Shown piece after piece: positions 28,105-48,403 of a stretch of 64,000 bases of DNA. Under the pieces are notes generated by a model, which made no database searches, had not been told where the DNA came from, and worked only from the letters and a program-made list of their open reading frames with translations. The number at the start of each line of letters is the position of its first letter. The first letter of the stretch is position 1. The stretch covers positions 1 through 64,000 of the forward strand of contig NZ_JAEMQX010000003.1 of assembly GCF_016463645.1 (NCBI RefSeq), written 5' to 3'. The position numbers and the translations under genes are program-made. This DNA comes from Sphingopyxis sp. Its GTDB lineage: Bacteria > Pseudomonadota > Alphaproteobacteria > Sphingomonadales > Sphingomonadaceae.

Positions 28105-28125
28105 CGCGGCGGCCGGGCCCGGCCG

Positions 28126-29403: not shown

Positions 29404-30743
29404 CGATCCACGCCCCGGGGCACCCGCCCCCCTTTCGCGAACCGTCGCCGCTGCACCGCGCGGTCGGCGCCTCGGCGCTCGGCAATGCGGTCGAATGGTT
29501 CGACTATGGCATCTACGCCTATGGCGTGACCTATATCTCCGCCGCGCTTTTCCCCGGCGATACCGAGGAGGCGGTGCTGTTCGCGCTCGCGACCTTCGCC
29601 ATCTCCTTCCTCGTCCGGCCGCTCGGCGGCCTGTTCTGGGGACCGCTCGGCGACCGCATCGGGCGCAAGTCGGTGCTCGCGATGACGATCCTGCTGATGG
29701 CGGGCGCGACCTTCGCGGTCGGGCTCATTCCCTCCTATGACAGCATCGGCTTCTGGGCGCCGACGCTGCTCATCGTCCTCCGCATGTTGCAGGGCTTTTC
29801 GACCGGCGGCGAATATGGCGGCGCGGCGACCTTCATGGCCGAATATGCCCCCGACGACCGCCGCGGCTTCTACGGCAGCTTCCTCGAATTCGGGACGCTC
29901 GCGGGCTTTTCCTTCGGCGCCGCGCTGATGCTCGGCTATTCGCTGCACCTCGGCGATCGGGCGATGCACGAATGGGGCTGGCGCATTCCCTTCCTGATCG
30001 CCGGTCCGATCGGCCTCATCGGCATGTATGTGCGATCGAAGATGGAAGACACGCCGATCTTTCGCGAGGAGATGGCGTCGGCCGAACGGCGCAAGCCGCC
30101 CGGCATCGCGGCGATGCTGCGCGACCACTGGCGCCCGCTTCTCGTCGTCGGCGGGCTCGTCGTCGCGCTCAACGTCGTCAACTATTCGCTGCTCAGCTAT
30201 ATGCCCACCTATCTCCAGCGGCGGATCGGCCTGTCGAACGAAGAAGCGCTGCTCGTGCCCATTATCGGCATGGTCTTCATGATGATCTTCCTGCCCTTCG
30301 CGGGCGCGCTGTCCGACCGCGTCGGCCGCCGCGCGATGTGGCGATGGTCGCTGATCGGGCTGCTGCTCGGCGTCGTCCCGCTCTATATGCTGATCGGGAC
30401 GGGGTTCACCGGCGCGCTGATCGGCTTCATGGCGCTCGGCCTCCTCTATGTGCCGCAACTTGCGACGATCTCGGCGACCTTTCCGGCAATGTTCCCGACC
30501 GCGGTGCGCTTCGCGGGCTTCGCGATCGCCTATAATATTTCGACCTCGATCTTCGGCGGCACCGCGCCGATGATCGGCAGCGGTCTCATCACCCTGACCG
30601 GCGATCCGCTCATGCCCGCCTATTATATGATGCTGGCATGTCTGACCGGCCTGGCGGCGTTGCGTTTCATGCCCGAAACGGCCGGGCGGTCGCTGCGCGA
30701 AGATCCTTTCGCACGGGACGCGCCGCCAGCCTCGGAAAGCTGA
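29388..30743 (+). CDS. MFS transporter, metabolite:H+ symporter (ProP-like)
   Basis: A 451-residue carrier of the MHS family. The N-terminal AVGASALGNAVEWFDYGIYA and the loop 2-3 motif GGLFWGPLGDRIGRKSVLA, plus FSTGGEYGGAATFMAEYAP, are diagnostic for ProP/ShiA/KgtP-type symporters. In an ectoine operon the likely cargo is proline, betaine or an ectoine. Equally, it converges on the operon for proline-like substrates at 30787-35542. ATG at 29388 lies inside the end of the upstream MFS gene. Confidence 0.9.
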   Translation: MEKPVTIHAPGHPPPFREPSPLHRAVGASALGNAVEWFDYGIYAYGVTYISAALFPGDTEEAVLFALATFAISFLVRPLGGLFWGPLGDRIGRKSVLAMTILLMAGATFAVGLIPSYDSIGFWAPTLLIVLRMLQGFSTGGEYGGAATFMAEYAPDDRRGFYGSFLEFGTLAGFSFGAALMLGYSLHLGDRAMHEWGWRIPFLIAGPIGLIGMYVRSKMEDTPIFREEMASAERRKPPGIAAMLRDHWRPLLVVGGLVVALNVVNYSLLSYMPTYLQRRIGLSNEEALLVPIIGMVFMMIFLPFAGALSDRVGRRAMWRWSLIGLLLGVVPLYMLIGTGFTGALIGFMALGLLYVPQLATISATFPAMFPTAVRFAGFAIAYNISTSIFGGTAPMIGSGLITLTGDPLMPAYYMMLACLTGLAALRFMPETAGRSLREDPFARDAPPASES

Positions 30744-30786: not shown

Positions 30787-31242
30787 CTAGACCGTCGGTC
30801 CTGAAAACCGGACCGGTTCGCGACCCGGAATCGTCAGCACGGACCGACCGGTCTCGCACCAGAGATGTCCGGTCGCCCCGCACGACAGCCTCGCGAAATC
30901 GTCCTCGGATATGATCAGGATCGGGATGGCGACGCCGTAAAGATCATCGGCAACCAGGGCGCCGATCGTGAGGATCGGGTCGGCGCGCGTGGTGATCACG
31001 CCGGCGGGCGCGCGCTTCGTGCGGGCGAGTTCGACCAGCGCGCTCGACGAGGAGGACGACCCCCGGCTTCCGGGCATCGCCAGCAGCCGATCGGCGAGTA
31101 TCGCGCCTCGCTGCGGGTGCGAGGCGTCGACGATGCGGCCGGTCTGCAGGTCGACCCCGCCCCACAGGCTCAGCGGATCGGTGAGCTTCAGCAGGGCCCC
31201 GCTCGCCATCCCCTCGATGAGGGCGTTTCCGCGGATCATCAT
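30787..31242 (-). CDS. Aconitase X swivel-domain (small) subunit, DUF126
   Basis: A 151-residue protein equal to the swivel domain of aconitase X: IRGNALIEGMASGALLKL, SLWGGVDLQTGRIVDASHPQRG, then a Ser-rich turn GSRGSSSSSSALVEL that shapes the active-site loop (catalytic Ser in this family) and PAGVITTRADPILTIGA. In AcnX of type II the two domains form cis-3-hydroxy-L-proline dehydratase. The gene overlaps the large-subunit stop (ATGATGA), so both are made together. Last gene of the six-gene operon. Confidence 0.9.
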   Translation of the reverse strand: MMIRGNALIEGMASGALLKLTDPLSLWGGVDLQTGRIVDASHPQRGAILADRLLAMPGSRGSSSSSSALVELARTKRAPAGVITTRADPILTIGALVADDLYGVAIPILIISEDDFARLSCGATGHLWCETGRSVLTIPGREPVRFSGPTV

Positions 31243-32468
31243 GGCGCCACCACCCTTCCCGTCTCGGCCGACCGGATGCAGCGCTCCAGCGTCATCAACG
31301 CGACCCGCCGCCCCAGATTGCCGGGGCCGTAATGCGCGTATTTGCCCGATGTCGTCAGGATCAGCCCCGACGTCTCGCGGACGACCGGCGCCAGATAGGT
31401 GCAGGTATCGACGACGATGTTGACGCCAAAGGCGCGCAAGGGACCGAAGGCGTCGTCGTCCGCAATCCCGGCGGCGATCTCGCGCGAGGTCGATACATAG
31501 ACTTCGGTCGCCGCCGCGCGGCGGCGTCCGTCCACGGCCTTGTTGAGCAAGTCGAATTCATGCATCGAATAATGCGGCGTGCCAAGGCAGACCGCCGCGA
31601 CGGCCTCGCCCTCCACCGCGCGGCACAGCGATGCGATCGCCCCCGCCACCTCGGCCGGCGACACCGTTTCGACCGGCAGCCCGACCGTCGGCATGTCGGC
31701 CGCCTCGGGCGTCACCCCCTCGGCGTGGAACAGCGCGAGCGCGCCCGACGACGCGCCCGTGGCGCCGAGCGCCTTCAGTTCGTCCTCGTTCGCATCGGGC
31801 GGCAATCCGCGCAGATAGGGAATGATGCCCGGCGCGCGGCGCCCGACGACATAGCCGATCGCGGCGAAATAGAGGTCGCGCGGCAGCCGTGCGGCATCGA
31901 TCGACGGAAGCTCGAAAACGACCGCCGGCCGGCGCGCCTCGTCGCGGTGCAGACCCGCGAGCGGCACGCGCCCCGTCAGCGCGGCGCAAAGGTCGGTGAA
32001 ATCGCCATAACGGTCGGTGCGCGCGCCGAGTACCGAGTTGATGAAGACGATGGCATTGGATTCGGCCCAGGCGACATGCTCGCCGCGCCGCGGGCGCGCC
32101 ATCCGCTGATAGGGCGCGCAGGTCAGCGTCGGCAGGCATCCGAGCAGCTCGTGCAGCCGGGTCAGTTCCTTCTGCTGCGCGATGATGTCCGGCGGGCCGC
32201 AATGCCAGCCGGGATGCGTGACGTCGACCGCCGCGACATTCAGCGTGGTCGGCACGCGCACCTTTCCGCCCAGATCGACGAAGCGTTCCACGAAATCGAT
32301 GCTCGACGGGCCGTGATAGAGGCATCCGTCGATATGCGCGGATTCGATCGGAATGAATCGCTCCGCGCCGCAGGCCTCGCCGTACCGGACGAGCAACGCC
32401 ATCGCGCGCCCGGCGGCGGCGCCATGCTCTCCGGCCAGCAGCGCGCGATCGATCGGTTCGAGCTTCAC
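31239..32468 (-). CDS. Aconitase X catalytic (large) subunit, DUF521
   Basis: A 409-residue aconitase X large subunit starting at GTG 32468, which overlaps the stop of the imine-reductase gene. Conserved cysteines for the Fe-S cluster are seen in LTCAPYQRM, VCLGTPHYS and VVDTCTYLAP, and GCLYHGPSSIDF marks the substrate pocket. Bacterial AcnX of known function dehydrates cis-3-hydroxy-L-proline to delta1-pyrroline-2-carboxylate. The neighbouring reductase fits that chemistry, but another hydroxy acid is possible. Confidence 0.9.
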   Translation of the reverse strand: MKLEPIDRALLAGEHGAAAGRAMALLVRYGEACGAERFIPIESAHIDGCLYHGPSSIDFVERFVDLGGKVRVPTTLNVAAVDVTHPGWHCGPPDIIAQQKELTRLHELLGCLPTLTCAPYQRMARPRRGEHVAWAESNAIVFINSVLGARTDRYGDFTDLCAALTGRVPLAGLHRDEARRPAVVFELPSIDAARLPRDLYFAAIGYVVGRRAPGIIPYLRGLPPDANEDELKALGATGASSGALALFHAEGVTPEAADMPTVGLPVETVSPAEVAGAIASLCRAVEGEAVAAVCLGTPHYSMHEFDLLNKAVDGRRRAAATEVYVSTSREIAAGIADDDAFGPLRAFGVNIVVDTCTYLAPVVRETSGLILTTSGKYAHYGPGNLGRRVALMTLERCIRSAETGRVVAP

Positions 32469-33406
32469 GACGCGCCGTATCCCGCGACGAGTTCCGCGGC
32501 CGCCAGATCCTCGATCGCGGTGCCCACCGACTTGAACAGCGTGATCGCCTCGCCGTCATCGCCGCGTCCCGGATGCGCGCCCGAACACAGCGCGGCGAGG
32601 TCGGCCTCGATCGCCTCCGCGCCGATCGCGCCGGCGTCGATCGCCCGAAGCAGATCGCCGGCCTCGTCCAGCACGCCCTCGCGGGTGTCGACGAAAACGC
32701 GCGCGCGGGCAAAGGTTTCGGCATCGGCCTCGCACATGTCGGGCCGGAACGCGCCGATCAGGTCGATGTGCATGCCGGGACGCAGCGCCGCCCCTGCGAT
32801 CAGCGGTTCGGTCGCGAGCGTCGCGGCCGAGACGATATCGGCCGCCGCCAATCCCGCGTCGACCGTCGCGACTGCTTCCGCCGGATATCCCTGCGCGCGC
32901 GCCGCGCGCGCCGCCGCCTCGGCCTTGCCCGCATCGCGGCCCCAGACCAGAACCCGTTTCAACTCGAAAGCGGCGGCATAGGCCTCGATGATCGGCGCGT
33001 TGAGAGCGCCGGTGCCGATGACGAGCAAGGTGGCCGACGCTGGCCGCGCAAGCCGCGACGCGGCAAGAACCGACGCGGCGGCGGTCCGGCGGCGGGTGAG
33101 CGCGGCGCCGTCGATCAGCGCGATCGGCGGCCCCGATGCGCGATCGTCCAGGACGTAGGTCGATCGGATCGAGGGACGCGAACACGGATCGACCGTGACG
33201 ATTTTCGTGCCGATCCGCCCGTTTCCCTTCCACGCAGGCATGACAAGCAACGAGGCGCCGCCCATATCCGCGGCGAGCCGCGGTGGTGCGCGATATTCGT
33301 CCCGGGCGAAAGCGTGCTGCAACGCCGCGATCAGCGCGGGCATCGGCGTTGCCCGCGCGACCGCTGCCGCATCGTACCAAGGGATCGTGGCGGCCGCCCC
33401 GGTCAT
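32465..33406 (-). CDS. Ornithine cyclodeaminase/mu-crystallin family reductase
   Basis: A 313-residue protein with N-terminal ALIAALQHAFARDEYRAPPR, a Rossmann fold starting LLVIGTGALNAPIIEAY, and GMHIDLIGAFRPDMCEAD, the usual OCD/mu-crystallin layout. Members beside aconitase X are delta1-pyrroline-2-carboxylate reductases that yield L-proline, so this is the first choice. It overlaps both neighbours by four bases. Ornithine cyclodeaminase or ketimine reductase activity cannot be excluded by sequence reading. Confidence 0.88.
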   Translation of the reverse strand: MTGAAATIPWYDAAAVARATPMPALIAALQHAFARDEYRAPPRLAADMGGASLLVMPAWKGNGRIGTKIVTVDPCSRPSIRSTYVLDDRASGPPIALIDGAALTRRRTAAASVLAASRLARPASATLLVIGTGALNAPIIEAYAAAFELKRVLVWGRDAGKAEAAARAARAQGYPAEAVATVDAGLAAADIVSAATLATEPLIAGAALRPGMHIDLIGAFRPDMCEADAETFARARVFVDTREGVLDEAGDLLRAIDAGAIGAEAIEADLAALCSGAHPGRGDDGEAITLFKSVGTAIEDLAAAELVAGYGAS

Positions 33407-34308
33407 GCGCCCGGGGTTCTGAGCTTCAGCATCTCGCGCGTCTCGGCGGGCGTCGCGACCTCATAGCCGCCGACCGCGTTGACGATCGTATAGGCGCGCT
33501 CGACGAGTTGGCCGTTGGTCGCCCAGACGCCGCGCGACATATAGAGATTGTCCTCCAGCCCGACGCGGATGTTGCCCCCGAGCAGCAAGGTGTGCGCGAG
33601 CATCGGCATCTGTTCGCGCCCGATTCCGAACGCGCCCCATATCGTTCCGGGCGCCATCAGGCTCTTCTGGTACAGGATCGTCTCGACGCCGTGCGGCGCC
33701 GCCCATTGCACGCCCAGCACCATCTGCATCATCGGCGGGCCGTCGATCAGCCCCTCTTCGACCAGCCTGTTGCCGAACAATATGTCGCCGGGGCCGAACA
33801 CCTCGAGTTCGGGCTTCACCCCCGCCGCCCGGAACCGTTTCGCCATCGCGCGCAGCGTGTGCGGCGGGCTGAAATAGATATATTCGGTCGGACCCTCGAC
33901 CTGGTTGTTGGTGACGATGTCGAGCGTCGCGATCTCGGGCAGCAATTCCTCGACATGCGCGACGCGCTCGTCGACGCCGACGACATCGCTGCCGGGCAGC
34001 ATATGCCCTTCCTTCTCGGGATCGGGCAGGAAATAGGCGCCCATGCCGCACGTCAGGTTGAGCACGATGTCGGTGCCGGTCTGGCGGACGCGATCGACGA
34101 CTTCGCGGAAATGCGCGCGGTCGCGGTTGCCCTCGCCCGTCTCGGGATCGCGGACGTGGATATGGACGATGCTCGCGCCCGCCGACGCGGCTTCGATACA
34201 GGCGTCGGCGATCTGCTTCGGCGTCACCGGCATCGACGGATGCTTCCTGTTATACGGCGCGCCGCCGGTGACCGCGCAGGTCAGGATCGTCTTCTTGTTC
34301 ATCGTCAT
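33403..34308 (-). CDS. Beta-keto acid cleavage enzyme (BKACE, DUF849)
   Basis: A 301-residue TIM-barrel enzyme. The zinc ligands HIHVRD are at about residues 47-52 and GLEDNLYM holds the fourth ligand, both diagnostic of BKACE (Kce). These enzymes condense a beta-keto acid with acetyl-CoA and release acetoacetate plus a new acyl-CoA. Known substrates include 3-keto-5-aminohexanoate and dehydrocarnitine. The upstream SDR could supply the beta-keto acid and the thioesterase could open the acyl-CoA product, as in carnitine breakdown. ATG 34308 overlaps the SDR stop. Confidence 0.93.
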   Translation of the reverse strand: MTMNKKTILTCAVTGGAPYNRKHPSMPVTPKQIADACIEAASAGASIVHIHVRDPETGEGNRDRAHFREVVDRVRQTGTDIVLNLTCGMGAYFLPDPEKEGHMLPGSDVVGVDERVAHVEELLPEIATLDIVTNNQVEGPTEYIYFSPPHTLRAMAKRFRAAGVKPELEVFGPGDILFGNRLVEEGLIDGPPMMQMVLGVQWAAPHGVETILYQKSLMAPGTIWGAFGIGREQMPMLAHTLLLGGNIRVGLEDNLYMSRGVWATNGQLVERAYTIVNAVGGYEVATPAETREMLKLRTPGA

Positions 34309-35063
34309 TCTTCCCATTCCATGTTGCCGCTCACGGCGATGATCTCTCCGGTGATCTTCTTGCCGGCGTCCGAGGTGAGGAATTCGACCATGTCGGCGAA
34401 CTCGCTGAGCTCGACCTTGCAGCGCAGCGACACATATTTGAGATAGTCGTTCTCGATGTCCTCGAAGCTCCGCCCCGTCGCGTCGACGTTGCGCTGGACG
34501 ATGAAGCGGAAACGGTCGTTGTTGATGATCCCGGGCAGGATCGCGTTGACGCGGATGCCCGACGGGCCAAGCTCGCGCGCGCTGTTCCTCGTCAGCCCCT
34601 CGACCCCCGCCTTCGACGCGATATAGGGCGCGCGGAACGGGATGCCGGTGCGCGTCGAGCAGGTCGAGAAATTGACGATCGAGCCGCCGCCGTTCGCCTT
34701 CAGCATCGGGACGGCGCGCTTCATCGTATAGAACATGCCCGACAGGTTGACCGCGATCGTCTTGTCCCACTCGTCCTCGTCGATATCCTCGATCGCGGCG
34801 CGCGGGCCCGCCATGCCGACGACATTGACCAGGACCGTCAGGTCGCCGACCTGCGCGCGCACATCGGCGAACAGGGCATCCACCTCGCTGCGAACGCCGA
34901 CATCGGTGACGCTGCCGCTCATTCCCGGATTCGCCGCCAGCGTCGCGGCGACCGCATCGCCGCGCACATCGCAGATATGCACCTTCGCGCCCTTTTGCAG
35001 GAAACGCTCGGCGATCGCGCGTCCGACGCTGTCGCCCGCCCCGGTAACCAGCACTCGTTCCAT
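34305..35063 (-). CDS. Short-chain dehydrogenase, probable beta-hydroxy acid dehydrogenase
   Basis: A 252-residue SDR with VTGAGDSVGRAIAE, the catalytic Ser region in NFSTCSTRTG and YIASK. NNAG is replaced by NVVG. In this operon it most likely oxidises a beta-hydroxy acid to the beta-keto acid used by the BKACE encoded directly after it (4-base overlap). This would be the SDR counterpart of L-carnitine dehydrogenase in the carnitine pathway; the assignment is contextual. Confidence 0.9.
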   Translation of the reverse strand: MERVLVTGAGDSVGRAIAERFLQKGAKVHICDVRGDAVAATLAANPGMSGSVTDVGVRSEVDALFADVRAQVGDLTVLVNVVGMAGPRAAIEDIDEDEWDKTIAVNLSGMFYTMKRAVPMLKANGGGSIVNFSTCSTRTGIPFRAPYIASKAGVEGLTRNSARELGPSGIRVNAILPGIINNDRFRFIVQRNVDATGRSFEDIENDYLKYVSLRCKVELSEFADMVEFLTSDAGKKITGEIIAVSGNMEWEE

Positions 35064-35080
35064 CAAAGCCTCCCTTCGGT

Positions 35081-35542
35081 TCAGTTCGTTTCGGCCGGCA
35101 GCATCAGCCGCCCGGCGATGGCGCGCTCGCGGTCGGACAGGGGCGTCGCCTTGCGCGCGCCCAGATCGAAGCGAACGGTGACGCCCTCCAATATCGTGCA
35201 GGGTTTGGCGTCGGGACGCCGCGACAGGATCGTCCGGTGCCGGATCGACGTGCGCCCGACCGACAATATGCCGCTGGCGAGGATCAGCAGGTCGCCCGCG
35301 ATCAGTTCGTGAAGATAGCGGATCTCGTGCGAGACATCGGCCCAGCCCGCGTTGCGGCCGTCGATCTCGCCCGCCGTCGGGCCGAAGAAGCCGAGCAGAT
35401 GATAGACCGCATTGTCGAGGAGCGGCATCTGATGCTGCACCGACATGTGACCCATCGCGTCGCAATGCCAGGGAAAGACGACTCCGCGAAAGGTTTCGAC
35501 CGGCGCGCTTGTCACTGATTCCGGGGTGATTTCGGGGTCCAT
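35081..35542 (-). CDS. Hotdog-fold acyl-CoA thioesterase
   Basis: A 153-residue 4HBT-type thioesterase. The motif VFPWHCDAMGHMSVQHQM corresponds to the active-site D-x-x-G-H-M/V-N block of the family, followed by the long central helix and a beta-sheet. The ATG at 35542 has GGAAAGG six bases before it. In carnitine breakdown a related thioesterase cleaves betainyl-CoA; here it would hydrolyse the acyl-CoA released by BKACE. First gene of the leftward operon thioesterase-SDR-BKACE-imine reductase-aconitase X. Confidence 0.9.
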   Translation of the reverse strand: MDPEITPESVTSAPVETFRGVVFPWHCDAMGHMSVQHQMPLLDNAVYHLLGFFGPTAGEIDGRNAGWADVSHEIRYLHELIAGDLLILASGILSVGRTSIRHRTILSRRPDAKPCTILEGVTVRFDLGARKATPLSDRERAIAGRLMLPAETN

Positions 35543-35587
35543 GATGCGCCTTTCCGTTGCCGACGGCACCGGACTAATCGCCCATGC

Positions 35588-35620
35588 TTGACTTGTCTAC
35601 ACAGATTATACACAATGTGT
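35588..35620. promoter_or_regulatory. Promoter with GntR-type operator before the TonB receptor
   Basis: TTGACT (35588-35593), 17 bases, then CACAAT (35611-35616) form a plausible rightward promoter for the receptor at 35676. The spacer holds TTGTCTACAC (35593-35602), matching TTGTATACAC at 43249-43258 in nine of ten bases, and the -10 sits in the palindrome ACACAATGTGT (35610-35620). Such sites suit a GntR/FCD repressor; the gene for one is at 41156. Confidence 0.6.
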
Positions 35621-35675
35621 TCATTGGGTATTCGCACTCTCGTCACAATCCATAAAACGTGCAAAAGGGGACAAT

Positions 35676-37799
35676 ATGCGTAGCAAGCTGAAGACTGGAT
35701 CGGGCCTTGGCGTCGTCGCCGCGCTGCTGTGGACGGCTCCCGCCGCCGCGCAGACGGCCGACGAAGCCGGTGCCGGGGATGCGAACGAAATCGTGGTGAC
35801 CGCGCAGAAGCGCGAGGAACGGCTGCAGGACGTGCCGATCTCGATCACCTCGCTCGGCGGCAAGGATCTCGACGCGCAGGCCAGCGGCGGCGTCAGCGAA
35901 GCCCTGCGTTCGGTCGCCGGCATCTCGATCACCAACTCGCCACAGGGCGGCGGGACGCAGCTCACGATCCGCGGCGTCGCCGCGAACGGCGCGACGCTCG
36001 CGGGGTCGAGCACCTCGGCCTTCTATATCGATTCGGTCCCCTTCGGCCTCGTCAAGTCGGCGATCCTGCCCGACACCAACGCCTATGACATGTCGCGCAT
36101 CGAGGTGCTGCGCGGGCCGCAGGGCACGCTCTACGGCGCCAACGCGCTGAACGGCGTCGTGCGCGTCCTCACCAACGACGCCAACCTCGACCGCTTCGAA
36201 TTCAAGGCGCGCGCCGGCGTCGCCGCGACCGAGGGCGGCGACCAGAGCTATCGCGGCGACATGGCGGTCAACATCCCGCTCGTCGAGGACAAGCTCGGTC
36301 TCCGCATCGTCGGCGGCTTCGAAAGCGCCGGAGGCTGGATCGATCAGCCCGCCCGCGGCGTCAAGAATGCCAACGACAGCCGCTCGCGCAACGTGCGTAT
36401 CAAGCTCAACGGTCAGCCGACCGACGATTTCAGCTTTGGCCTGTCGGCATGGATATCGCGCATCGACCAGGACGCGCCCGCCTATGCCAACGACGCCGGC
36501 AACCAGCTGACCACCGTGCCGTTGCCGCAGAAGCTGAACTATGACGCGTTCAGCGCCAGGCTCGGCTACGACTTCGGCGCCTTCGAGGTATCGAGCGCGA
36601 CGAGCTACCTCAAATTCACCAACCTCAGCGAGCGCGACTATACCAATCTCGCGCCGGACCAGACGCTCCACACCGAAATCGGCTCGAAGATCTTCACCGA
36701 GGAACTGCTGATCAATTCGACCGGCGGCGGCGACTGGCGCTGGTCGGTCGGCGGCTTCTACCGCGACGCGTCCGACCTTCTGAACCAGACCCTCTTCGTC
36801 CTCCCGGCACCGATCAACTTCAAGGACAAGTCGCGCTCGTTCGCGGCGTTCGGCGAAGTCACGCGCAGCTTCATGGACGGCACGTTCGAAGTCACCGGCG
36901 GGCTGCGCTATTTCAAGGACCGCGTGACCCAGATCGAGCTCACCCCGACCACCGGCGACCCGGCGCAGCCGCTCGCGCGGCGCACCGACACCTTCGATGC
37001 GGTGACCCCGCGCGCGGTGATCACCTGGCTGCCGAGCCGCCGCTTCACCGCCTATGCGTCCTACTCGCAGGGCTTCCGCAGCGGCTTCAACCAGAGCCCG
37101 ACGATCATCCGCACCGCCCCCGGCATCCCGCCGGTCAAGGCCGACCGCCTGTCGAACTACGAAGTCGGCGCGAAGGGCAGCCTGCTCGGCGGCGCACTCA
37201 CCTTCGATGCCGCGCTCTATTATATCGACTGGAAGGACATTCAGCAGAACCTCAACGTCGACATCGACGGCGTCGTCTTCGCCGCGTCGGTCAACGGGCC
37301 GAAGGCGAGCGGCTTCGGCGCAGACCTCGCGCTCACCGCGCACCCGGTGGAGGGGCTCGACATCGGCGGCACCTTCAGCTGGAACGGCCTCGACCTTGCC
37401 GGCCCGATCGTGACGCAAACCGCGGCCGGACCCGTCACCCTCTACAACAAGGGCGACCGCCTCGCCTTCTCGCCCGAATATACGGCGAGCGGCTTCCTCG
37501 ATTATCGTTTCCCCGTCGGCAAGGCGGGGCTCAAGGGCATAGTCTCGGGCTCGCTGACCTATCGCTCGAAAATCCCCGCGCGCCTGCTCGCGTCGGGCGC
37601 CGCGCGCTACTTTCTCAGCGACGAACCGCTGCTCGCGCGCGGCAGCATCGGGCTCGAATCGCCCGACAACTGGACCGCCTCGCTCTACGTCGAGAATATC
37701 GGCAACTGGAACGGCATCACCCAGCCGCCGACGGACATCAGCCAGGAATATCGCATGCGCCCGCGCACCGTGGGCCTGCAGTTCGAATTCCGTTATTGA
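35676..37799 (+). CDS. TonB-dependent outer-membrane receptor
   Basis: A 707-residue receptor with signal peptide ending near APAAAQ, a TonB-box-like EIVVTAQKREERLQDVP, plug motif EVLRGPQGTLYGANALNGVVRV and a final strand ending FEFRY with the terminal aromatic residue needed for assembly. It is divergent from the thioesterase/BKACE/aconitase X operon and followed by a terminator, then by a peptidase and carrier. I infer uptake of a peptide-like or amino-acid-derived compound. Confidence 0.95.
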   Translation: MRSKLKTGSGLGVVAALLWTAPAAAQTADEAGAGDANEIVVTAQKREERLQDVPISITSLGGKDLDAQASGGVSEALRSVAGISITNSPQGGGTQLTIRGVAANGATLAGSSTSAFYIDSVPFGLVKSAILPDTNAYDMSRIEVLRGPQGTLYGANALNGVVRVLTNDANLDRFEFKARAGVAATEGGDQSYRGDMAVNIPLVEDKLGLRIVGGFESAGGWIDQPARGVKNANDSRSRNVRIKLNGQPTDDFSFGLSAWISRIDQDAPAYANDAGNQLTTVPLPQKLNYDAFSARLGYDFGAFEVSSATSYLKFTNLSERDYTNLAPDQTLHTEIGSKIFTEELLINSTGGGDWRWSVGGFYRDASDLLNQTLFVLPAPINFKDKSRSFAAFGEVTRSFMDGTFEVTGGLRYFKDRVTQIELTPTTGDPAQPLARRTDTFDAVTPRAVITWLPSRRFTAYASYSQGFRSGFNQSPTIIRTAPGIPPVKADRLSNYEVGAKGSLLGGALTFDAALYYIDWKDIQQNLNVDIDGVVFAASVNGPKASGFGADLALTAHPVEGLDIGGTFSWNGLDLAGPIVTQTAAGPVTLYNKGDRLAFSPEYTASGFLDYRFPVGKAGLKGIVSGSLTYRSKIPARLLASGAARYFLSDEPLLARGSIGLESPDNWTASLYVENIGNWNGITQPPTDISQEYRMRPRTVGLQFEFRY

Positions 37800-37807
37800 G
37801 CCTCTCC

Positions 37808-37837
37808 GGGGGCCGGAGCGATCCGGCCCCCGTTTTC
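37808..37837 (+). terminator. Rho-independent terminator behind the TonB receptor
   Basis: A perfect 9-bp stem (GGGGGCCGG and CCGGCCCCC) around a 6-base loop AGCGAT, followed by GTTTTC. It begins 9 bases after the receptor stop codon and ends before the GTG of the peptidase, so it should lower expression of the peptidase and carrier relative to the receptor. Confidence 0.8.
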
Positions 37838-37852
37838 AAAAAAGGTTTGCCC

Positions 37853-39847
37853 GTGTCCTCCCCCGATAGCGATCTCCCCTCCTCCGCCAACGCCATCGAA
37901 GCGCAGGTCCGCGATTATTTCGAGCGCCTCTATCGCCCCGGCGCCGGGCAATTCCATGGCATCGTCCATGTCGCGCCCAACCCCACCAGTGGCATGATCG
38001 CCTTTTCGGGCCCGATGATGCGCGCCGGCGGCGGCTTCCCGGTCACGCGCATCGGCCTTCTCGCCCCCGACGGCACGGTGACCCTGCTCGGCAGCGACGA
38101 GGCGAACGACAGCCAGCCGAAATGGTCGCCCGACGGCCGCCGGCTTGCCTTCCTGTCCGACCGCGACCATGGCGCGGGCAATTTCCAGTTGATGATCGCA
38201 TCGGCCGATGCTCTCGATCGCGCCACCGCGCCCGCACCGATTGCCGGCGAGGCGGTCGAAAGCTTCGTCTGGGCGGCCGACAGCGGCAGAGTTCTGCTTC
38301 AGAGCGCCGACGCCGGCGCCGATGCCGCCGGGTCGGCGGCGACCGCGCGCATCGGCGGAGGCGACGGCGGCGAACGCCCCTCGTGGATGCCGACCGTCGA
38401 AACCGGCGGCCACGACGGCCTGTGGCGCCGTGCGCATATTCTCGACATCGAAAGCGGCGCGCTCGCGCGCGTCGGCACCGACGGCCAGAATGTCTGGGAA
38501 GCCGACTGGTGCGGCCCCGACGCGGTCGTCGCGATAACCTCGGCCAGCCCGACCGAGGGCGGCTGGTACCAGACCGAAATCGCGATCGCCCCCGCGGCCG
38601 GCGGCGCCTTCGAACGCTTCGCCGCGCCCGAGGTCGAACTCGCCGGCATCACCGCCTCGTCCGATGGCCAGACGATCGCGGTAATCGAGGGACGGTTCCA
38701 CCGCACCGTCCAGCTCGGCTCGCTCATCCTCTACGACCGCGCGACCGGCGCGGCGCGCGAGCCCGATATCGGCGCACAGGTGTCGGCGCTCGTCTGGCGC
38801 GATGCGAACCGCCTCTTCTTCGCGGGCTTCGCCGCACCGGGATCGGTCGCGGGAACGCTCGATATCGCGAACGGTACCACCGCAATCGAATGGCGCGTGT
38901 CGGGCACGGCGGGACGCAAGGTGCCCTATGCGGTCCCCGAAGGCGAGGACGCCGTCCTCGTCCCCGGCCACGCTTTCGACCGCTATCCCTATCTCGCGCG
39001 CTCGGACGCGGCGGGCGAGCAGATGCTGCTCGACCTCACCCCGCCCGACCTCGCGCCCGTCCAGGCGCGGATGAAACCCGCCGAGGTCGTGCGCTGGCAC
39101 GGCCGCGACGGGCTCGACATCCTCGGCTATCTCGCGATGCCCGAAGGGGTCGAACACCCGCCGCTCGTCGCCTTCATCCATGGCGGCCCCTCGCATCTGT
39201 TCCGCGATAGCTGGAGCTTCGACAACCCGCTCGCGGCGCTGCTCGTCAGTTCGGGCTATGCGGTGCTCTTCCCCAATCCGCGCGGCAGTTCGGGGCGCGG
39301 GCTCGATTTCGCGTCGCGCGTGATCGGCGACATGGCAGGCGAGGATGTGCACGACATATTGGCGGGGATCGACCATGTCGTCGCCAACCACCCGGTCGAC
39401 GGCAGCCGGCTGTTCGTCACCGGCGGCAGCTACGGCGGCTTCATGACCACCTGGCTCGTCGGCCAGACGGGGCGCTTTCAGGCGGCGTGCGCGATCGCGC
39501 CGCTGACCGACATGCGCAGCCAGTATTTCACCGCACACCATCCCGAATTCCTGTCGCTCTATTCGGAAGGCGATCCCTATGACGTCGGCGGCACCTTCGA
39601 CCGGCGGAGCCCGCTCGCGCACGCGAACAAGGTGACGACGCCGACGCTGCTGATCGCGGGCGAGATGGACAAGACCACCCCGCCCGCGCAGGCGGTGCAA
39701 TTCCACCATGCGCTCGTTCTCGCGGACGTGCCGACCGAACTGATACTCTACCCGGAGGAGGGGCACGCCGCCGCACGCTTCGAGGCACAGGTCGATCAGG
39801 GAACGCGCGTGCTGCGCTGGTTCGCGCAGTGGCGGGATCGCAATTGA
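37853..39847 (+). CDS. S9 family (prolyl-oligopeptidase-type) serine peptidase
   Basis: About 664 residues: an N-terminal beta-propeller (SDEANDSQPKWSPDGRRLAF and later WD-like repeats) and a C-terminal alpha/beta hydrolase domain. The catalytic Ser is in GGSYGGFMTTW, the Asp in AGEMDKTTPP and the His in PEEGHAAARF. Such enzymes (dipeptidyl/acylaminoacyl peptidases) often act on proline- or acyl-capped peptides. The GTG at 37853 is preferred because an in-frame TTG at 37796 would place the terminator hairpin inside the coding region. No signal peptide is evident, so cytoplasmic. Confidence 0.9.
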   Translation: MSSPDSDLPSSANAIEAQVRDYFERLYRPGAGQFHGIVHVAPNPTSGMIAFSGPMMRAGGGFPVTRIGLLAPDGTVTLLGSDEANDSQPKWSPDGRRLAFLSDRDHGAGNFQLMIASADALDRATAPAPIAGEAVESFVWAADSGRVLLQSADAGADAAGSAATARIGGGDGGERPSWMPTVETGGHDGLWRRAHILDIESGALARVGTDGQNVWEADWCGPDAVVAITSASPTEGGWYQTEIAIAPAAGGAFERFAAPEVELAGITASSDGQTIAVIEGRFHRTVQLGSLILYDRATGAAREPDIGAQVSALVWRDANRLFFAGFAAPGSVAGTLDIANGTTAIEWRVSGTAGRKVPYAVPEGEDAVLVPGHAFDRYPYLARSDAAGEQMLLDLTPPDLAPVQARMKPAEVVRWHGRDGLDILGYLAMPEGVEHPPLVAFIHGGPSHLFRDSWSFDNPLAALLVSSGYAVLFPNPRGSSGRGLDFASRVIGDMAGEDVHDILAGIDHVVANHPVDGSRLFVTGGSYGGFMTTWLVGQTGRFQAACAIAPLTDMRSQYFTAHHPEFLSLYSEGDPYDVGGTFDRRSPLAHANKVTTPTLLIAGEMDKTTPPAQAVQFHHALVLADVPTELILYPEEGHAAARFEAQVDQGTRVLRWFAQWRDRN

Positions 39848-41139
39848 GCATCGCCCCCACCCCCGCCGCACAGGGCGGCGGCGCGGCGCATCTCTATTCT
39901 CCGGCGCGCCGCTGGACCTTCCTTGCGATCCTGTTCCTCGTCGGCGCGTCGAGCTCGATCGACCGCGTCGTCATTTCGGTGCTGCTCGAACCCATCAAGC
40001 AGGAATTCCGGGTCTCCGACACCCAGCTCGGGCTGCTCAGCGGCCTCTCTTTCGCATTGCTCTATTCGGCGTTCGGCCTGCCGATCGCGCGCTTCGCCGA
40101 TCGCGGCAATCGCAAGAAGCTCATCGCGGCCGCGATCTCGGTGTGGAGCCTGATGACCGTGCTGTGCGCCGCGGCGGCCAGTTTCTGGCAGCTCCTGCTC
40201 GCGCGCATCGGCGTCGGCGTCGGCGAAGCCGGCGCGACCCCGCCCGCCCAGTCGCTGATCGTCGACTATTTCCCGACCGCGCAGCGCGCCCGCGCGATCG
40301 GCATTTTCGCGACGTCGGGGACCGTCGGCTATCTGATCGGGCTGTCGGCGGGGTCGCAGCTCGTCGCCGCCTACGGCTGGCGCGCGACGCTCGTCGCCTT
40401 CGGCCTGCCGGGCCTCCTGATCGCCGCGCTCGTCTGGTGGGTGCTCGACGAACCGCGTCAGCGGGTCGATGCCGCGGTTTCCCGCGCCAGCACGGAAGAT
40501 TTCCGGACTTCGGTGCGCCGCCTCGTCGACAAGCGCTCCTTCGTGCTGATGCTGACGGGGTTCACCCTCTATCATTTCGCCGCCTATGGCTCGCTCGTCT
40601 TCGTACCCTCCTACCTCGTCCGCGTGATCGAAAGTCCGATCGAACAGGCGGGGCTCTATTATGGCGCGACGTCGGCGCTGGGGGTGCTGATCGGCAGCCT
40701 CGCCGGCGGCGCGATCCAGGACGCGCTGTCGCGGCGCGATCCGCGCTGGATCGTCCGCTTCCCCGCCATCGCCTTCGGTCTCGCGGCGCTGCCCAATTGC
40801 GCGATGTTCCTGATCGACGACCTGCCGGCCTTTCTGGTCGTCAGCACGATCGGCGGCATCCTGCTCTACGCTGCCCTGCCCGCCGCCTTCGCCGCGATCC
40901 ACGCGGTGTGCGGCAGCGCGCGGCGGGCGACCGCGATCGCGATCGTCCTCTTCTTCGGCAATCTCCTGGGCTTCGGTCTCGGTCCGGTGATCACCGGCGC
41001 GCTCAGCGACCATTTCAGCGCGATCCACGGCCCCCAGGGGCTGCGCTACGCGCTGATCATCGTGATGGCGCTGACCTTGCCGACCGCATTTTTCTTCTAC
41101 CGCGCGAGCGGCAGGGTGGCGGACGATCTGGAGGACTGA
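39844..41139 (+). CDS. MFS transporter (Spinster-like)
   Basis: A 12-helix carrier of about 431 residues. SSIDRVVISVLLEPIKQEF in the first segment and LPIARFADRGNRKKLI in loop 2-3 place it with the MFS protein at 11628. The TTG at 39844 overlaps the stop of the peptidase gene; a GTG at 39829 is the alternative. Probably imports the compound handled by the receptor and peptidase. Converges on the GntR gene 16 bases away, with no clear terminator. Confidence 0.92.
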   Translation: MSIAPTPAAQGGGAAHLYSPARRWTFLAILFLVGASSSIDRVVISVLLEPIKQEFRVSDTQLGLLSGLSFALLYSAFGLPIARFADRGNRKKLIAAAISVWSLMTVLCAAAASFWQLLLARIGVGVGEAGATPPAQSLIVDYFPTAQRARAIGIFATSGTVGYLIGLSAGSQLVAAYGWRATLVAFGLPGLLIAALVWWVLDEPRQRVDAAVSRASTEDFRTSVRRLVDKRSFVLMLTGFTLYHFAAYGSLVFVPSYLVRVIESPIEQAGLYYGATSALGVLIGSLAGGAIQDALSRRDPRWIVRFPAIAFGLAALPNCAMFLIDDLPAFLVVSTIGGILLYAALPAAFAAIHAVCGSARRATAIAIVLFFGNLLGFGLGPVITGALSDHFSAIHGPQGLRYALIIVMALTLPTAFFFYRASGRVADDLED

Positions 41140-41155
41140 AGCTGGCGGGCGCGGC

Positions 41156-41914
41156 TCAGCCGCGACCGTTCAGCGAGAAATCGGCGGTGCTCGCACCGGC
41201 GACAAAGGTCTTCATCCGCTCGCGGAACTCGTCCGAATGCTCGTAGACCAGCCGTTCGGCCTCGGCGGCGTCGCCGCGGCGGATCGCGTCGATCATCTGA
41301 TCATGCTGCTCGATGACGTCCGAATAGCTCAGCAGCGCCGCGCCGTTCTGGCGAAAGGCGAGCAGCGACAGGCGCATCACGCCGCGCAGCATTTTCGAGC
41401 AGTCGGCGGCGAGGAACCTGTTTCCGCACGCCTGATTGATCGCGTCGTGAAAGGCCCAGTTCGCCTCGACGATCAGGCGGGGATCGCGCGTTTCGCTCGC
41501 GACCGCGAACTCGCGGTTGCGCTGTTCGAGCAGGTCGAGGTGATGCGGCTGCCGGCGCAGCGCCGCCCAGCGCGTCGTCGCGCGCTCATAGAGTTCGAGG
41601 GCCTCGAGCACCTGCGGAACCTGGTCGAGGTCGAGCGGCGCGACGCGCGCACCGCGGTTCGGCGCCAGCACGACAAGGCTGTCCGACGCGAGCCGGATCA
41701 GCGCCTCGCGGATCGGGGTGCGCGAAAAGCCCAGCTCGCGGCTGAACTGGACCTCGTCCAGCTCGGTGTTCGGCGGCAGGTCGAGATTCAGGATCTGCTC
41801 GCGCAGCAAGGCATAGACCTTCTGTCCCGAGGACTGGCGGGCGACCTCTTCGCTTATGTCTAGGACCTCCGCCGGCTCGGCGGGCTTGTCGGATCTGGTT
41901 CGGGCTGCGCGCAT
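41156..41914 (-). CDS. GntR-family regulator with FCD ligand domain
   Basis: A 252-residue regulator. Winged helix at about residues 30-95 (VYALLREQILNLDLPPNTEL; FSRTPIREALIRLASDSLV), then the all-helical FCD domain with WAFHDAINQACGNRF and HDQMIDAIRRGDAAEAE. FCD regulators sense small carboxylates. It is encoded 10 bases behind the M20 deacylase. A TTGT(A/C)TACAC element occurs upstream of this operon and of the receptor at 35676, so it is the likely controller of the whole 30.8-43.1 kb module. Confidence 0.92.
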   Translation of the reverse strand: MRAARTRSDKPAEPAEVLDISEEVARQSSGQKVYALLREQILNLDLPPNTELDEVQFSRELGFSRTPIREALIRLASDSLVVLAPNRGARVAPLDLDQVPQVLEALELYERATTRWAALRRQPHHLDLLEQRNREFAVASETRDPRLIVEANWAFHDAINQACGNRFLAADCSKMLRGVMRLSLLAFRQNGAALLSYSDVIEQHDQMIDAIRRGDAAEAERLVYEHSDEFRERMKTFVAGASTADFSLNGRG

Positions 41915-41923
41915 CGCCGATCT

Positions 41924-43120
41924 CTACTCCGCATGGGTCATCGCAATCAACCTCGACATGAACCGCGCGCCCGCCTCGATCTGCGCGATCTCGATATATT
42001 CGTCGGGGCGGTGCGCCTGGACGATCGATCCCGGGCCGCAGATCACCGTCGACATGCCCGCGGTCTGGAACTGTCCCGCCTCGGCGCCATAGGATACCGC
42101 GCCCGCCGGCGTCACGACCTCGCTCAGCATCGCCGCCAGCCGCTCGGCGGCGCCTTCCTCCTCGCGGCGCAGCGGCGGCACCTCGGCGATCGCCCGCACC
42201 GCGATGCCGGTTTCTTCGCCCTCGCCCTTCAGCCGCGTTCGCGCCTCCTCGACCGCCGCCCAGAAGGGGGCGAGCACCGCATCGGCGTCGCGGTCGGGCA
42301 CCGTGCGCAGGTCGAAGGTGAAACGGCATTCGCGCGCGAGGATATTCGCCGCGGTACCGCCGTGGATCGTCCCCACCGTCAGCGTCGACCAGGGCGGGTC
42401 GAAGCGCGCATCGCGGTGATCGGCGCGCTCGTCTTCAGCGATCCTGCCAAGTACGCCCAATATCCCGATCGCGATCATGTTCGCCGATACGCCCTCGTGC
42501 ACCAGGCTCGAATGCGCCTCGCGGCCGGTGACGACCACCTCGTAAAGGTGGATGCCCTTGTGGCTGTTGATGATCGCCATTTCGGTCGGCTCGCCGACGA
42601 TCGCCGCGACCGGGCGATGCCCCTCGGCGACCAGCGCGTCGATCAGGTCGGGCGCACCGAGGCAGCCGATCTCCTCGTCATAGGAAAAGGCGAGATGGAC
42701 CGGACGCGTCATCGTGCGCGGCGTCAGGTAAGGCACCGCCGCGAGCGCGAGCGCGATAAAGCTCTTCATGTCGGCGGTGCCGCGGCCATAGAGGCGCCCG
42801 CCGTCCTCGGCGAGCGTGAAGGGATCGCGGCTCCACGGCTGGCCTTCGACCGGCACGACGTCGGTATGCCCCGACAGGACCAGTCCGCGCGCGTCGGCGG
42901 GTCCGATCGTCGCGAGCAGATTGGCCTTGCTGCCGTCGGCGTTGGCGATCCGCCGCGACGCGACGCCATGCCCCGCCAGATACGCCTCGACATGGTCGAT
43001 CAGCGCGAGGTTCGACGCGCTCGACGTGGTGTCGAACGCGACCAGCCGCGCGAGGATGTCGATCGCCGATGCCGCGAGCGCGGGGGCCAGATTGTCGTCG
43101 CTCCGCGGCGCTCCGCTCAT
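41924..43120 (-). CDS. M20 metallo-deacylase (acetylornithine deacetylase/ArgE type)
   Basis: A 398-residue M20 enzyme with two-zinc motifs LVLSGHTDVVPV, GRGTADMKSFIALAL and SYDEEIGCLG, and a dimerisation lid in the middle. ArgE-type members remove N-acyl groups from amino acids or peptides. Being encoded with the GntR regulator beside peptidase and receptor genes, it more probably deacylates an N-acyl amino acid from the imported substrate than serves arginine synthesis. ATG at 43120 chosen; the frame is open to 43258 but the extra residues resemble no ArgE N-terminus. Confidence 0.9.
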   Translation of the reverse strand: MSGAPRSDDNLAPALAASAIDILARLVAFDTTSSASNLALIDHVEAYLAGHGVASRRIANADGSKANLLATIGPADARGLVLSGHTDVVPVEGQPWSRDPFTLAEDGGRLYGRGTADMKSFIALALAAVPYLTPRTMTRPVHLAFSYDEEIGCLGAPDLIDALVAEGHRPVAAIVGEPTEMAIINSHKGIHLYEVVVTGREAHSSLVHEGVSANMIAIGILGVLGRIAEDERADHRDARFDPPWSTLTVGTIHGGTAANILARECRFTFDLRTVPDRDADAVLAPFWAAVEEARTRLKGEGEETGIAVRAIAEVPPLRREEEGAAERLAAMLSEVVTPAGAVSYGAEAGQFQTAGMSTVICGPGSIVQAHRPDEYIEIAQIEAGARFMSRLIAMTHAE

Positions 43121-43439
43121 CGGCCGCACCCCGCAGGGGCCGCCGGCCCCGCCAGCGACGCGCAAGACCGCCGCGCGCCTCCCGTCCGCGCGCGCTGCCC
43201 AAAACCTTCCTGCATGAAAACCCCTGCTGCGAATGCCGTGTCCTGTTATTGTATACACTTTGTATTATTCTCGTCGGCAGTCAATAGGCATTGCGACGAA
43301 ACAGGTCCGATATGCGCGATGATCGAGAAGTTGCTCATGAAAGGGCGGCGCACCCCGGGCGAATGGAACCCGCGGTGCGCCGCAGTGTGACCGGCGCGGT
43401 CACAGGATGGGAGAGGAACAGGGCGCCGGCCGATTTCGA
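43121..43439. promoter_or_regulatory. Upstream region of the deacylase-GntR operon
   Basis: A 319-base stretch with no supported gene. TTGTATACAC at 43249-43258 contains the perfect palindrome TGTATACA (43250-43257), typical for GntR/FCD operators, and matches nine of ten bases of the element at 35593-35602. Reading leftward, TTGACT (complement of 43279-43284) lies just upstream as a possible -35 box. The part from 43320 to 43439 shows nothing clear. Confidence 0.6.
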
Positions 43440-44393: not shown

Positions 44394-44430
44394 ATCAGTC
44401 TCCTTTGGTGGTATCGGTTGGCGGCGGGGT

Positions 44431-48224: not shown

Positions 48225-48403
48225 TATAGTGGGTCCCCGGGCGGCGATCCCGCCCCCTTTTTGATGTGATGGATGGTGGCGCGATGCGCCGCACCGGATC
48301 GGGCAGCCGCCAGTTCCGCCCCCCACAGCGCACGGGCGGCGCTGCGCAGGGACGCAGGATAGCGAGCCAGATCCGACAGGTCGGCTCGGGTCAGCAAAGG
48401 CAT
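48224..48403 (-). CDS. Small leader ORF coupled to the TonB receptor
   Basis: A 59-residue ORF starting ATG 48403 (GGGGA about 8 bases upstream) with an amphipathic helix around LARYPASLRSAARALWGAEL and a basic IHHIKKGAG tail. Its TAA stop shares its last base with the ATG of the receptor (TAATG). No family is recognised, and third codon positions are GC-rich but less so than in neighbouring genes. It may be a real microprotein or a leader whose translation controls the receptor. Confidence 0.5.
   Translation of the reverse strand: MPLLTRADLSDLARYPASLRSAARALWGAELAAARSGAAHRATIHHIKKGAGSPPGDPL

What the first reader, a model, noticed from the sequence alone, without database searches (positions are those of the whole stretch)
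30787..43120. Unassigned catabolic regulon: aconitase X, imine reductase, BKACE, SDR and thioesterase with a TonB receptor, S9 peptidase, MFS and M20 deacylase
Three operons stand together. The leftward one ends in the two-part aconitase X and an ornithine-cyclodeaminase-fold reductase (known pair for cis-3-hydroxyproline to proline) and starts with thioesterase-SDR-BKACE (known logic of carnitine breakdown: beta-hydroxy acid to beta-keto acid, acetyl-CoA-dependent cleavage, release of the acid). The others bring a receptor, a peptidase, a carrier, a deacylase and the regulator. I know of no described pathway that joins these two chemistries. A peptide-like or N-acylated natural product containing hydroxyproline and a beta-hydroxy acid unit would explain the set. 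Each family assignment is solid; the joint pathway is inference.
Basis: partly seen in the sequence, partly recalled or inferred. Interest (0 to 1): 0.68.

Follow-up and report, generated by a model that had tools for sequence, protein, structure and literature searches.

The report
Breakdown genes for hydroxyproline natural product
Eleven neighbouring genes, kept together in the same order in several sphingomonad bacteria, look like one supply line that imports and digests a peptide-like natural product whose unusual core is a hydroxyproline lengthened by two carbons; if so, they would also point to a natural source of the rare amino acid cis-3-hydroxyproline.

Summary
In detail: eleven genes (30787-43120) have the stated families. 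Of 19 aconitase X relatives returned by a scan of species genomes, five carry the set in the same order: four complete, and Sphingomonas colocasiae without the imine reductase. Flanking genes are not shared. The genes show purifying selection, and TTGTMTACAC occurs exactly twice in the window, at two of the cluster's promoters. So this is one conserved unit.

SDR, BKACE and thioesterase would turn R-CHOH-CH2-COOH into R-COOH; AcnX and the imine reductase would then need R-COOH to be cis-3-hydroxyproline. Such a malonate-extended hydroxyproline is 'Det', the core of detoxin/rimosamide-like depsipeptides, which protect some bacteria from blasticidin S. I propose that the cluster digests such a compound: about 0.5 for the serial route, 0.4 for the compound class. 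No enzyme or substrate was tested, Det's ring stereochemistry was not verified, and BKACE lies outside the carnitine clade, so its tree does not by itself favour an amine substrate.

The parts
30787..31242 (-). aconitase X small subunit (swivel domain)
   Evidence: Pfam PF01989; [quoted passage not shown]
31239..32468 (-). aconitase X large subunit; predicted cis-3-hydroxyproline dehydratase with the small subunit
   Evidence: Pfam PF04412; [quoted passage not shown] contact residues
32465..33406 (-). ornithine-cyclodeaminase-fold imine reductase, predicted pyrroline-2-carboxylate reductase
   Evidence: Pfam PF02423; PRK06141 318.2 bits against a cut-off of 322
33403..34308 (-). beta-keto acid cleavage enzyme (BKACE)
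   Evidence: Pfam PF05853; solved relative 3c6c, E=1.4e-133; only BKACE found in the own genome
34305..35063 (-). short-chain dehydrogenase, predicted beta-hydroxy acid dehydrogenase
   Evidence: Pfam; YxxSK and TGxGxxxG-type motifs in all 6 copies
35081..35569 (-). hotdog-fold thioesterase (4HBT_2)
   Evidence: Pfam PF13279; weak similarity to thioesterases of 2 of 3 other BKACE loci compared
35588..35611 (-). 24-base block identical in all six genomes in the divergent thioesterase/receptor promoter; holds TTGTCTACAC at 35593-35602 (plus strand)
35676..37799 (+). TonB-dependent receptor
   Evidence: Pfam plug and barrel
37796..39847 (+). S9 family peptidase with a beta-propeller repeat match, related to acyl-peptide hydrolases
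   Evidence: Pfam; solved relatives; GGSYGG in all 6 copies by pattern
39829..41139 (+). MFS carrier (exact start unsure)
   Evidence: Pfam
41156..41914 (-). GntR-FCD regulator
   Evidence: Pfam GntR plus FCD
41924..43120 (-). M20 family deacylase, ArgE-like
   Evidence: Pfam; PRK07522 and TIGR01892 over their cut-offs
43250..43266 (-). conserved AATACAA-NN-TGTATACA element upstream of M20, overlapping TTGTATACAC at 43249-43258 (plus strand)

Best explanation
One conserved, probably GntR-controlled catabolic unit for a peptide-type natural product whose core is a 3-hydroxyproline lengthened by a reduced malonate unit (Det, 3-hydroxy-3-(3-hydroxypyrrolidin-2-yl)propanoate), most likely a detoxin/rimosamide-like (DRL) depsipeptide. 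Import by the TonB receptor and the MFS carrier; release of Det by the S9 peptidase and the M20 deacylase. Then a linear route: the SDR oxidises the beta-hydroxyl; BKACE with acetyl-CoA gives acetoacetate and 3-hydroxyprolyl-CoA; the thioesterase frees cis-3-hydroxyproline; AcnX dehydrates it to pyrroline-2-carboxylate; the imine reductase makes proline. Shown: families, conserved order, purifying selection, AcnX contact residues, shared operator-like site. Inferred: every reaction, their order, and the substrate.
For: Eleven genes in fixed order in four other genomes and ten of eleven in a fifth, with flanks not shared and dN/dS 0.03-0.56 in all pairs computed. TTGTMTACAC twice in the window, at two cluster promoters, 0.02 expected, 0 of 100 shuffles with two; 24 bases identical in 6 of 6 divergent promoters. 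AcnX keeps 11 of the contact or ligand residues named in PMC8184944 (passages) and replaces three conservatively. The SDR-BKACE pair also occurs in Cupriavidus at 58% and 66%. AcnX-OCD without BKACE stands near prolidase-type peptidases in the two loci annotated: where no peptidase of that kind is present, the thioesterase-SDR-BKACE set takes that place. Det is a proline with a ring hydroxyl next to the chain and a malonate extension reduced to the alcohol (PMC9503745, passages), so these enzymes would undo its assembly. DRLs are N-acylated or otherwise capped depsipeptides of soil, plant-associated and marine bacteria (PMC12828459, first of five parts; PMC8302735 and PMC12911931, passages).
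Against: No activity or substrate was tested. The cis relation in Det was not found in the passages I saw. BKACE forms its own clade outside the carnitine clade, and I could not check which residues bind an amine. S. colocasiae lacks the local imine reductase, though it has a 44% homologue elsewhere. A DRL has more bonds (ester, O-acyl, Ile/Val-Det amide, N-acyl) than the two hydrolases obviously serve. AcnX is less conserved between genera (about 72%) than BKACE (93%) and SDR (85-90%), so the halves do not evolve at one rate. The exact 10-base site is not kept upstream of M20 in any of the 5 other genomes.
Confidence: 0.5

Rival explanations
1. Parallel, not serial: one peptide or lipopeptide contains 3-hydroxyproline as an ordinary residue and, separately, a beta-hydroxy acid; AcnX/OCD and SDR/BKACE/thioesterase degrade the two parts independently.
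For: Explains the same genes; AcnX-OCD also occurs without BKACE (14 of 19 loci) near peptidases; peptide antibiotics with hydroxyprolines exist (telomycin, pneumocandins, named in PMC5144071, passages); miramides carry 3-hydroxy acyl groups (PMC9503745).
Against: Close BKACE (>60%) was seen only beside AcnX in 298 family genomes; common beta-hydroxy acids can be degraded through CoA esters without BKACE (general knowledge); a separate hydroxyproline residue would be expected to need a prolidase-type enzyme, and none is among the eleven genes.
Confidence: 0.27
2. Serial route of the same logic on a different ring or chain, for example a malonate-extended 3-hydroxypipecolate or another cyclic beta-hydroxy amino acid, not a DRL.
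For: The OCD protein scores just under a model that covers both pyrroline-2- and piperideine-2-carboxylate; Ile206, which lines the ring in the solved enzyme, is Leu here.
Against: No natural product of this kind is known to me; Leu206 is shared with most relatives examined.
Confidence: 0.12
3. Carnitine or betaine catabolism with an accessory hydroxyproline branch.
For: Thioesterase, dehydrogenase and BKACE together follow the logic of carnitine breakdown; carnitine-operon BKACEs are 51-53% identical.
Against: The dehydrogenase is an SDR, not the 3-hydroxyacyl-CoA-dehydrogenase type annotated in carnitine operons; the carnitine BKACE clade is separate; a TonB receptor and peptidases are not needed.
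Confidence: 0.04
4. Hydroxyectoine turnover: AcnX and OCD act on hydroxyectoine made by the neighbouring ectoine hydroxylase.
For: Ectoine hydroxylase over its cut-off lies 4 kb away; hydroxyectoine is also a cyclic beta-hydroxy amino acid derivative.
Against: The ectoine-side genes are not found in the roughly 9.5 kb held beyond AcnX-S in any of the 5 other clusters nor beyond M20.
Confidence: 0.03
5. Chance neighbours: three unrelated operons.
For: Close BKACE is rare: found only in the own genome in samples of 396 (order), 385 (class) and 398 (phylum) genomes at strict cut-offs, and 0 of 18 other same-genus genomes.
Against: Ten or eleven genes in fixed order in five other genomes with different flanks; shared operator-like site.
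Confidence: 0.02

Closest known systems
Bacterial cis-3-hydroxy-L-proline pathway (aconitase X plus pyrroline-2-carboxylate reductase; PMC5144071, PMC8184944, passages)
   Same: AcnX with conserved contact residues and an OCD-fold reductase encoded beside it
   Different: No proline racemase-like, D-hydroxyproline dehydrogenase or ABC genes of the described Lhp clusters among the eleven genes; instead BKACE, SDR, thioesterase, TonB receptor, S9 and M20
L-carnitine degradation operon (carnitine 3-dehydrogenase, BKACE, thioesterase; e.g. Paracoccus denitrificans, Agrobacterium fabrum)
   Same: Logic: beta-hydroxy acid to beta-keto acid, BKACE, then thioesterase; BKACE 51-53% identical
   Different: SDR instead of the carnitine dehydrogenase; BKACE in a different clade; thioesterase at most weakly similar; linked to AcnX and peptidases
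AcnX-OCD-peptidase loci of sphingomonads (Rhizorhabdus histidinilytica L078/L051, Sphingopyxis MAG L081)
   Same: Related AcnX (64-68%) with an OCD-family gene in the neighbourhood, peptidases and, in L078, a TonB receptor
   Different: No BKACE in the DNA held; M24, M2 or S58 peptidases instead
Cupriavidus pinatubonensis SDR-BKACE locus (L070; its BKACE is very close to the unassigned solved structure 3c6c)
   Same: SDR 58% and BKACE 66%, side by side
   Different: No AcnX, OCD, thioesterase or TonB receptor in the 19 kb shown; hydantoinase/oxoprolinase genes instead

Membership tests
[quoted passage not shown]
   Trp35, Ser70, Asp203, Asn233, Glu292, Ser293, Asn294, Lys530 and Tyr534 kept; Cys71 and Thr72 to Ser and Ile206 to Leu, in all 6 cluster copies. 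PMC8184944 calls the sites completely conserved in IIa, so the three changes are a reservation.
[quoted passage not shown]
   Two genes; Cys273 and Cys508 kept, Cys510 is Tyr and Ser449 is Thr
[quoted passage not shown]
   The sequences of the characterised IIa enzymes were not in hand; no assay possible
BKACE family | PF05853 domain and the conserved HxH and LEDN motifs | tested here: met
   289.8 bits against 24.8; motifs in all 6 copies. That these are the zinc site is recalled.
L-carnitine degradation BKACE | falls in the carnitine-operon clade | tested here: not met
   own clade 100/100; the carnitine-operon clade is separate at 98/98
L-carnitine degradation operon | carnitine 3-dehydrogenase gene | tested here: not met
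   the dehydrogenase is an SDR
Pyrroline-2-carboxylate reductase, OCD type | passes the curated model PRK06141 | tested here: inconclusive
   318.2 bits against a cut-off of 322
L-hydroxyproline (Lhp) gene cluster | racemase-like, D-hydroxyproline dehydrogenase and ABC transporter genes around AcnX | tested here: not met
   none among the eleven genes; description of Lhp clusters from PMC5144071 (passages)
Proposed DRL catabolic pathway | growth on, or turnover of, a detoxin/rimosamide-like compound | not testable with these tools
   needs compound and strain
Proposed DRL catabolic pathway | all pathway genes stay together in other genomes | tested here: met
   4 of 5 complete, 1 of 5 without the imine reductase

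The most novel reading that the evidence does not exclude
Sphingomonads carry a dedicated pathway that eats detoxin/rimosamide-like 'antibiotic antidotes' by undoing their biosynthesis: a carnitine-style retro-Claisen step removes the malonate extension and aconitase X removes the ring hydroxyl, giving proline and acetoacetate. It would be a way of inactivating these antidotes in the environment and a natural source of cis-3-hydroxyproline.
Probability: 0.4. Interest if true: 0.78.

Novelty: new variant of a known kind. Interest (0 to 1): 0.62.

Why it matters
The authors who assigned aconitase X wrote that, to their knowledge, cis-3-hydroxyproline had been found only in telomycin (PMC5144071, passages), so why bacteria keep enzymes for it is open. 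A conserved cluster that would make it from a malonate-extended proline offers a concrete source. It would also name consumers of detoxin/rimosamide-like antidotes and give a BKACE with a new predicted kind of substrate that can be assayed at once. Deposited strains carry the cluster (Sphingopyxis panaciterrae DSM 27164; Sphingomonas colocasiae JCM 31229), so the test is direct.

Tried and rejected
Hydroxyectoine link: considered because an ectoine hydroxylase lies next door; disfavoured because those genes are not in the flanks held of the 5 other clusters. Carnitine: disfavoured after the tree. The window genome as a DRL producer: no NRPS condensation domain found (assembly 94.8% complete in 270 contigs, so not absolute). 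BKACE residues as evidence for an amine substrate: PMC4922564 (passages) names a 'positively charged' group G5, but residue positions were not in the text I saw, so I make no claim. BKACE beside an NRPS-PKS gene in Sinorhizobium mexicanum: looked at, not resolved.

Limits of the surveys. The order, class and phylum samples used cut-offs of 1e-130, 1e-115 and 1e-105 and speak only of close orthologues. The genome-contig scan used two short peptide patterns, so its 19 loci are a lower bound; L083, L085, L088, L089 and L091 are held with shortened flanks. Of 63 other family genomes with a BKACE match I fetched 15 regions from 14 genomes. Before the BKACE tree three rows with stop codons in the fetched frame (L021, L024, L028) were dropped, and L022 is a long, unsure branch. 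The pattern 'TE' used for OCD was meaningless and is ignored; the thioesterase pattern WHCDxxGH failed in Root720 because it reads WFCDSMGH there. Besides the divergent promoter, L073 holds one more TTGTNTACA site outside the cluster. The cluster is 68.0% G+C against 66.0% for the window, so composition does not mark it off.

Papers. In the listings no title or abstract start speaks of DRL or Det breakdown, and one search listed no paper holding both 'aconitase X' and a BKACE term; I did not read most of the listed papers, and only open-licence PMC papers are searchable. Structure prediction and fold search were not used.
Full report
1. What is there. The three operons exist as described. Leftward: thioesterase (35081-35569), SDR (34305-35063), BKACE (33403-34308), OCD-fold imine reductase (32465-33406), aconitase X large (31239-32468) and small subunit (30787-31242). 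Rightward: TonB receptor (35676-37799), S9 peptidase (37796-39847), MFS carrier (39829-41139). Leftward again: M20 deacylase (41924-43120) and GntR-FCD regulator (41156-41914). Families; positions. The own genome, held as 270 contigs, has one BKACE match, this one.

2. Is it one thing? A scan of species genomes with an alignment of three AcnX large subunits returned 19 loci. Five of 19 carry the set: Sphingopyxis sp. BIN8 (L073), Sphingopyxis sp. BC_concoct.bin.48 (L074), Sphingopyxis panaciterrae DSM 27164 (L075) and Sphingomonas sp. Root720 (L077) with all eleven genes, and Sphingomonas colocasiae JCM 31229 (L076) with ten, the imine reductase missing. Order and orientation are the same; the M20 end was completed by fetching the other flank. 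S. colocasiae has an imine-reductase homologue at 44% identity elsewhere. The other 14 of 19 loci, with AcnX at 68% identity or less, show no BKACE in the DNA held; five of them have shortened flanks (L083, L085, L088, L089, L091).

3. The converse. In 298 family genomes, BKACE above 60% identity occurs only in the own genome and in G253, whose contig has the same length as that of S. colocasiae; both have AcnX in the same cluster. Fifteen 20-kb regions around BKACEs at 43-60%, from 14 of the 63 other genomes with a match, hold no AcnX. So this BKACE was seen only with AcnX, while AcnX also occurs without it. Close BKACEs are rare: samples of 396 (order), 385 (class) and 398 (phylum) genomes gave the own genome only, at strict cut-offs.

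4. Boundaries. The TauD and MFS_2 genes to one side and the ectoine hydroxylase, aspartokinase and MFS genes to the other were not found in the flanks held of the five clusters; the second TonB receptor has only weak matches at 29-32% in L073, L077 and L121. Pairwise dN/dS between the window and each of the five genomes lies between 0.03 and 0.56 for all gene pairs computed.

5. Regulation. In the divergent thioesterase/receptor promoter 24 bases (35588-35611) are identical in 6 of 6 genomes. Upstream of M20, AATACAA-NN-TGTATACA is conserved in 6 of 6. In the window the two promoters share TTGTMTACAC: two matches in 64 kb, 0.02 expected, 0 of 100 shuffles with two. In the other five genomes the M20 element keeps TGTATACA but not the exact 10-mer; the looser TGTNTACAC is kept in 2 of 5. 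The shared site is thus best supported in the window and weaker elsewhere. The GntR-FCD regulator of the unit is the natural candidate; binding is inference.

6. AcnX. The solved cis-3-hydroxyproline dehydratase matches the large subunit at E=2.4e-82 and the small one at E=5.5e-25. Using the contacts and ligands named in PMC8184944 (passages), the cluster keeps Trp35, Ser70, Asp203, Asn233, Cys273, Glu292, Ser293, Asn294, Cys508, Lys530 and Tyr534, and changes Cys71 and Thr72 to Ser and Ile206 to Leu, in all 6 cluster copies and most relatives. Cys510 is Tyr, leaving two candidate cysteines, which is what the paper reports for type IIa, a cis-3-hydroxyproline dehydratase class; but it also calls the contact sites completely conserved in IIa, so the three changes are a reservation. 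Three distant AcnX of the same family (L067-L069) lose Asp203 and Asn233. A cyclic beta-hydroxy alpha-amino acid as substrate is well supported; exact specificity is not.

7. BKACE, SDR, thioesterase. The best solved relatives of BKACE are 3c6c (1.4e-133) and 9zsc (1.1e-72); Kce (2y7d) follows at 8.8e-32. In a tree of 38 BKACEs the six cluster copies form one clade (100/100), next to the Cupriavidus gene with modest support (92/75), and outside the carnitine-operon clade (98/98, which also holds four family genomes) (contexts). The only plasmid match of the SDR at E<=1e-70 is the Cupriavidus SDR beside that BKACE. The SDR has an Asp after the second strand (ICD), which by a recalled rule favours NAD+ and so oxidation. 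The thioesterase is weakly similar to thioesterases beside other BKACEs in 2 of 3 comparisons (5e-12, 3e-6; not to L097) and has no solved relative at E<=0.1.

8. Front ends. I annotated two AcnX loci without BKACE. The Rhizorhabdus locus has M2, M24/creatinase-type, esterase, amidohydrolase and AstE/AspA-type genes; the Sphingopyxis MAG locus has an M24 protein with prolidase-type domains, S58, beta-lactamase-fold and hydantoinase B genes and an S9 peptidase at 32%. There 3-hydroxyproline could come from prolyl peptides. The present cluster has no such prolidase-type gene among its eleven; thioesterase-SDR-BKACE stand in that place, as expected if they deliver the hydroxyproline. This is inference.

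9. The serial route. SDR, BKACE and thioesterase would turn R-CHOH-CH2-COOH into R-COOH and acetoacetate. If R-COOH is AcnX's substrate, the starting acid is 3-hydroxyproline lengthened by a reduced malonate. This is the Det residue of detoxin/rimosamide-like depsipeptides: a proline with a beta-hydroxyl and a malonate extension whose keto group is reduced (PMC9503745, passages). Such compounds come from Streptomyces, Pseudomonas, Chitinimonas and Pseudovibrio and protect Bacillus cereus from blasticidin S (PMC12828459, first of five parts, and passages; PMC12911931 and PMC8302735, passages). The S9 enzyme's solved relatives after an unspecified S9 peptidase (8wt1) are acyl-peptide hydrolases, and M20 is ArgE-like, which suits N-acyl amino acid ends. 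Which enzyme cuts the ester, the O-acyl group and the Ile/Val-Det bond is open, and so is where each enzyme sits in the cell.

10. Limits. Nothing biochemical was done. The cis relation in Det was not verified. The BKACE tree does not favour an amine substrate. Between genera, BKACE (93%) and SDR (85-90%) are much better conserved than AcnX-L (71-73%), AcnX-S (49-63%) or the thioesterase (65-68%); this may be looser constraint or variation in the compounds eaten. I put 0.5 on the serial route and 0.4 on the detoxin/rimosamide class.

11. Novelty. The enzymes belong to known families; the combination and predicted pathway were not seen in the searches made, which cover open-licence papers and which I saw mostly as listings. 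I file it as a new variant of a known kind.

Noticed in passing
window 25748-30743: Ectoine hydroxylase (over its curated cut-off), a PRK09181-type aspartate kinase and two MFS carriers, one ProP-like: a hydroxyectoine/osmoprotectant neighbourhood beside, but not shared with, the cluster.
   Followed up: partly
window 20126-20830: 3-oxoacid CoA-transferase subunit A, over its cut-off, about 10 kb from the cluster; could use the acetoacetate that BKACE would release. Not tested for linkage elsewhere.
   Followed up: no
window 43440-48581: TauD-type dioxygenase, MFS_2 carrier and a second TonB receptor on the minus strand; TauD and MFS_2 not found in the other clusters' flanks.
   Followed up: partly
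L071 8920-10619 (Pseudomonas sp. MPC6 plasmid): AcnX with Asp203 to Asn and Ile206 to Phe, between betaine/proline ABC transporter genes: perhaps a dehydratase for a hydroxyproline betaine.
   Followed up: no
L124 10710-19880 (Sinorhizobium mexicanum plasmid pEmeITTGR7b): A BKACE 57% identical to the cluster's, divergent from an NRPS/type I PKS gene, with ectB and MATE genes near by.
   Followed up: partly
L098 71-7339 (Paracoccus versutus pTAV3): BKACE with a 3-hydroxyacyl-CoA-dehydrogenase-type gene and a thioesterase, near proline racemase-family, mandelate racemase-family and GntR genes: possibly another carnitine-like route for a proline-derived compound.
   Followed up: no
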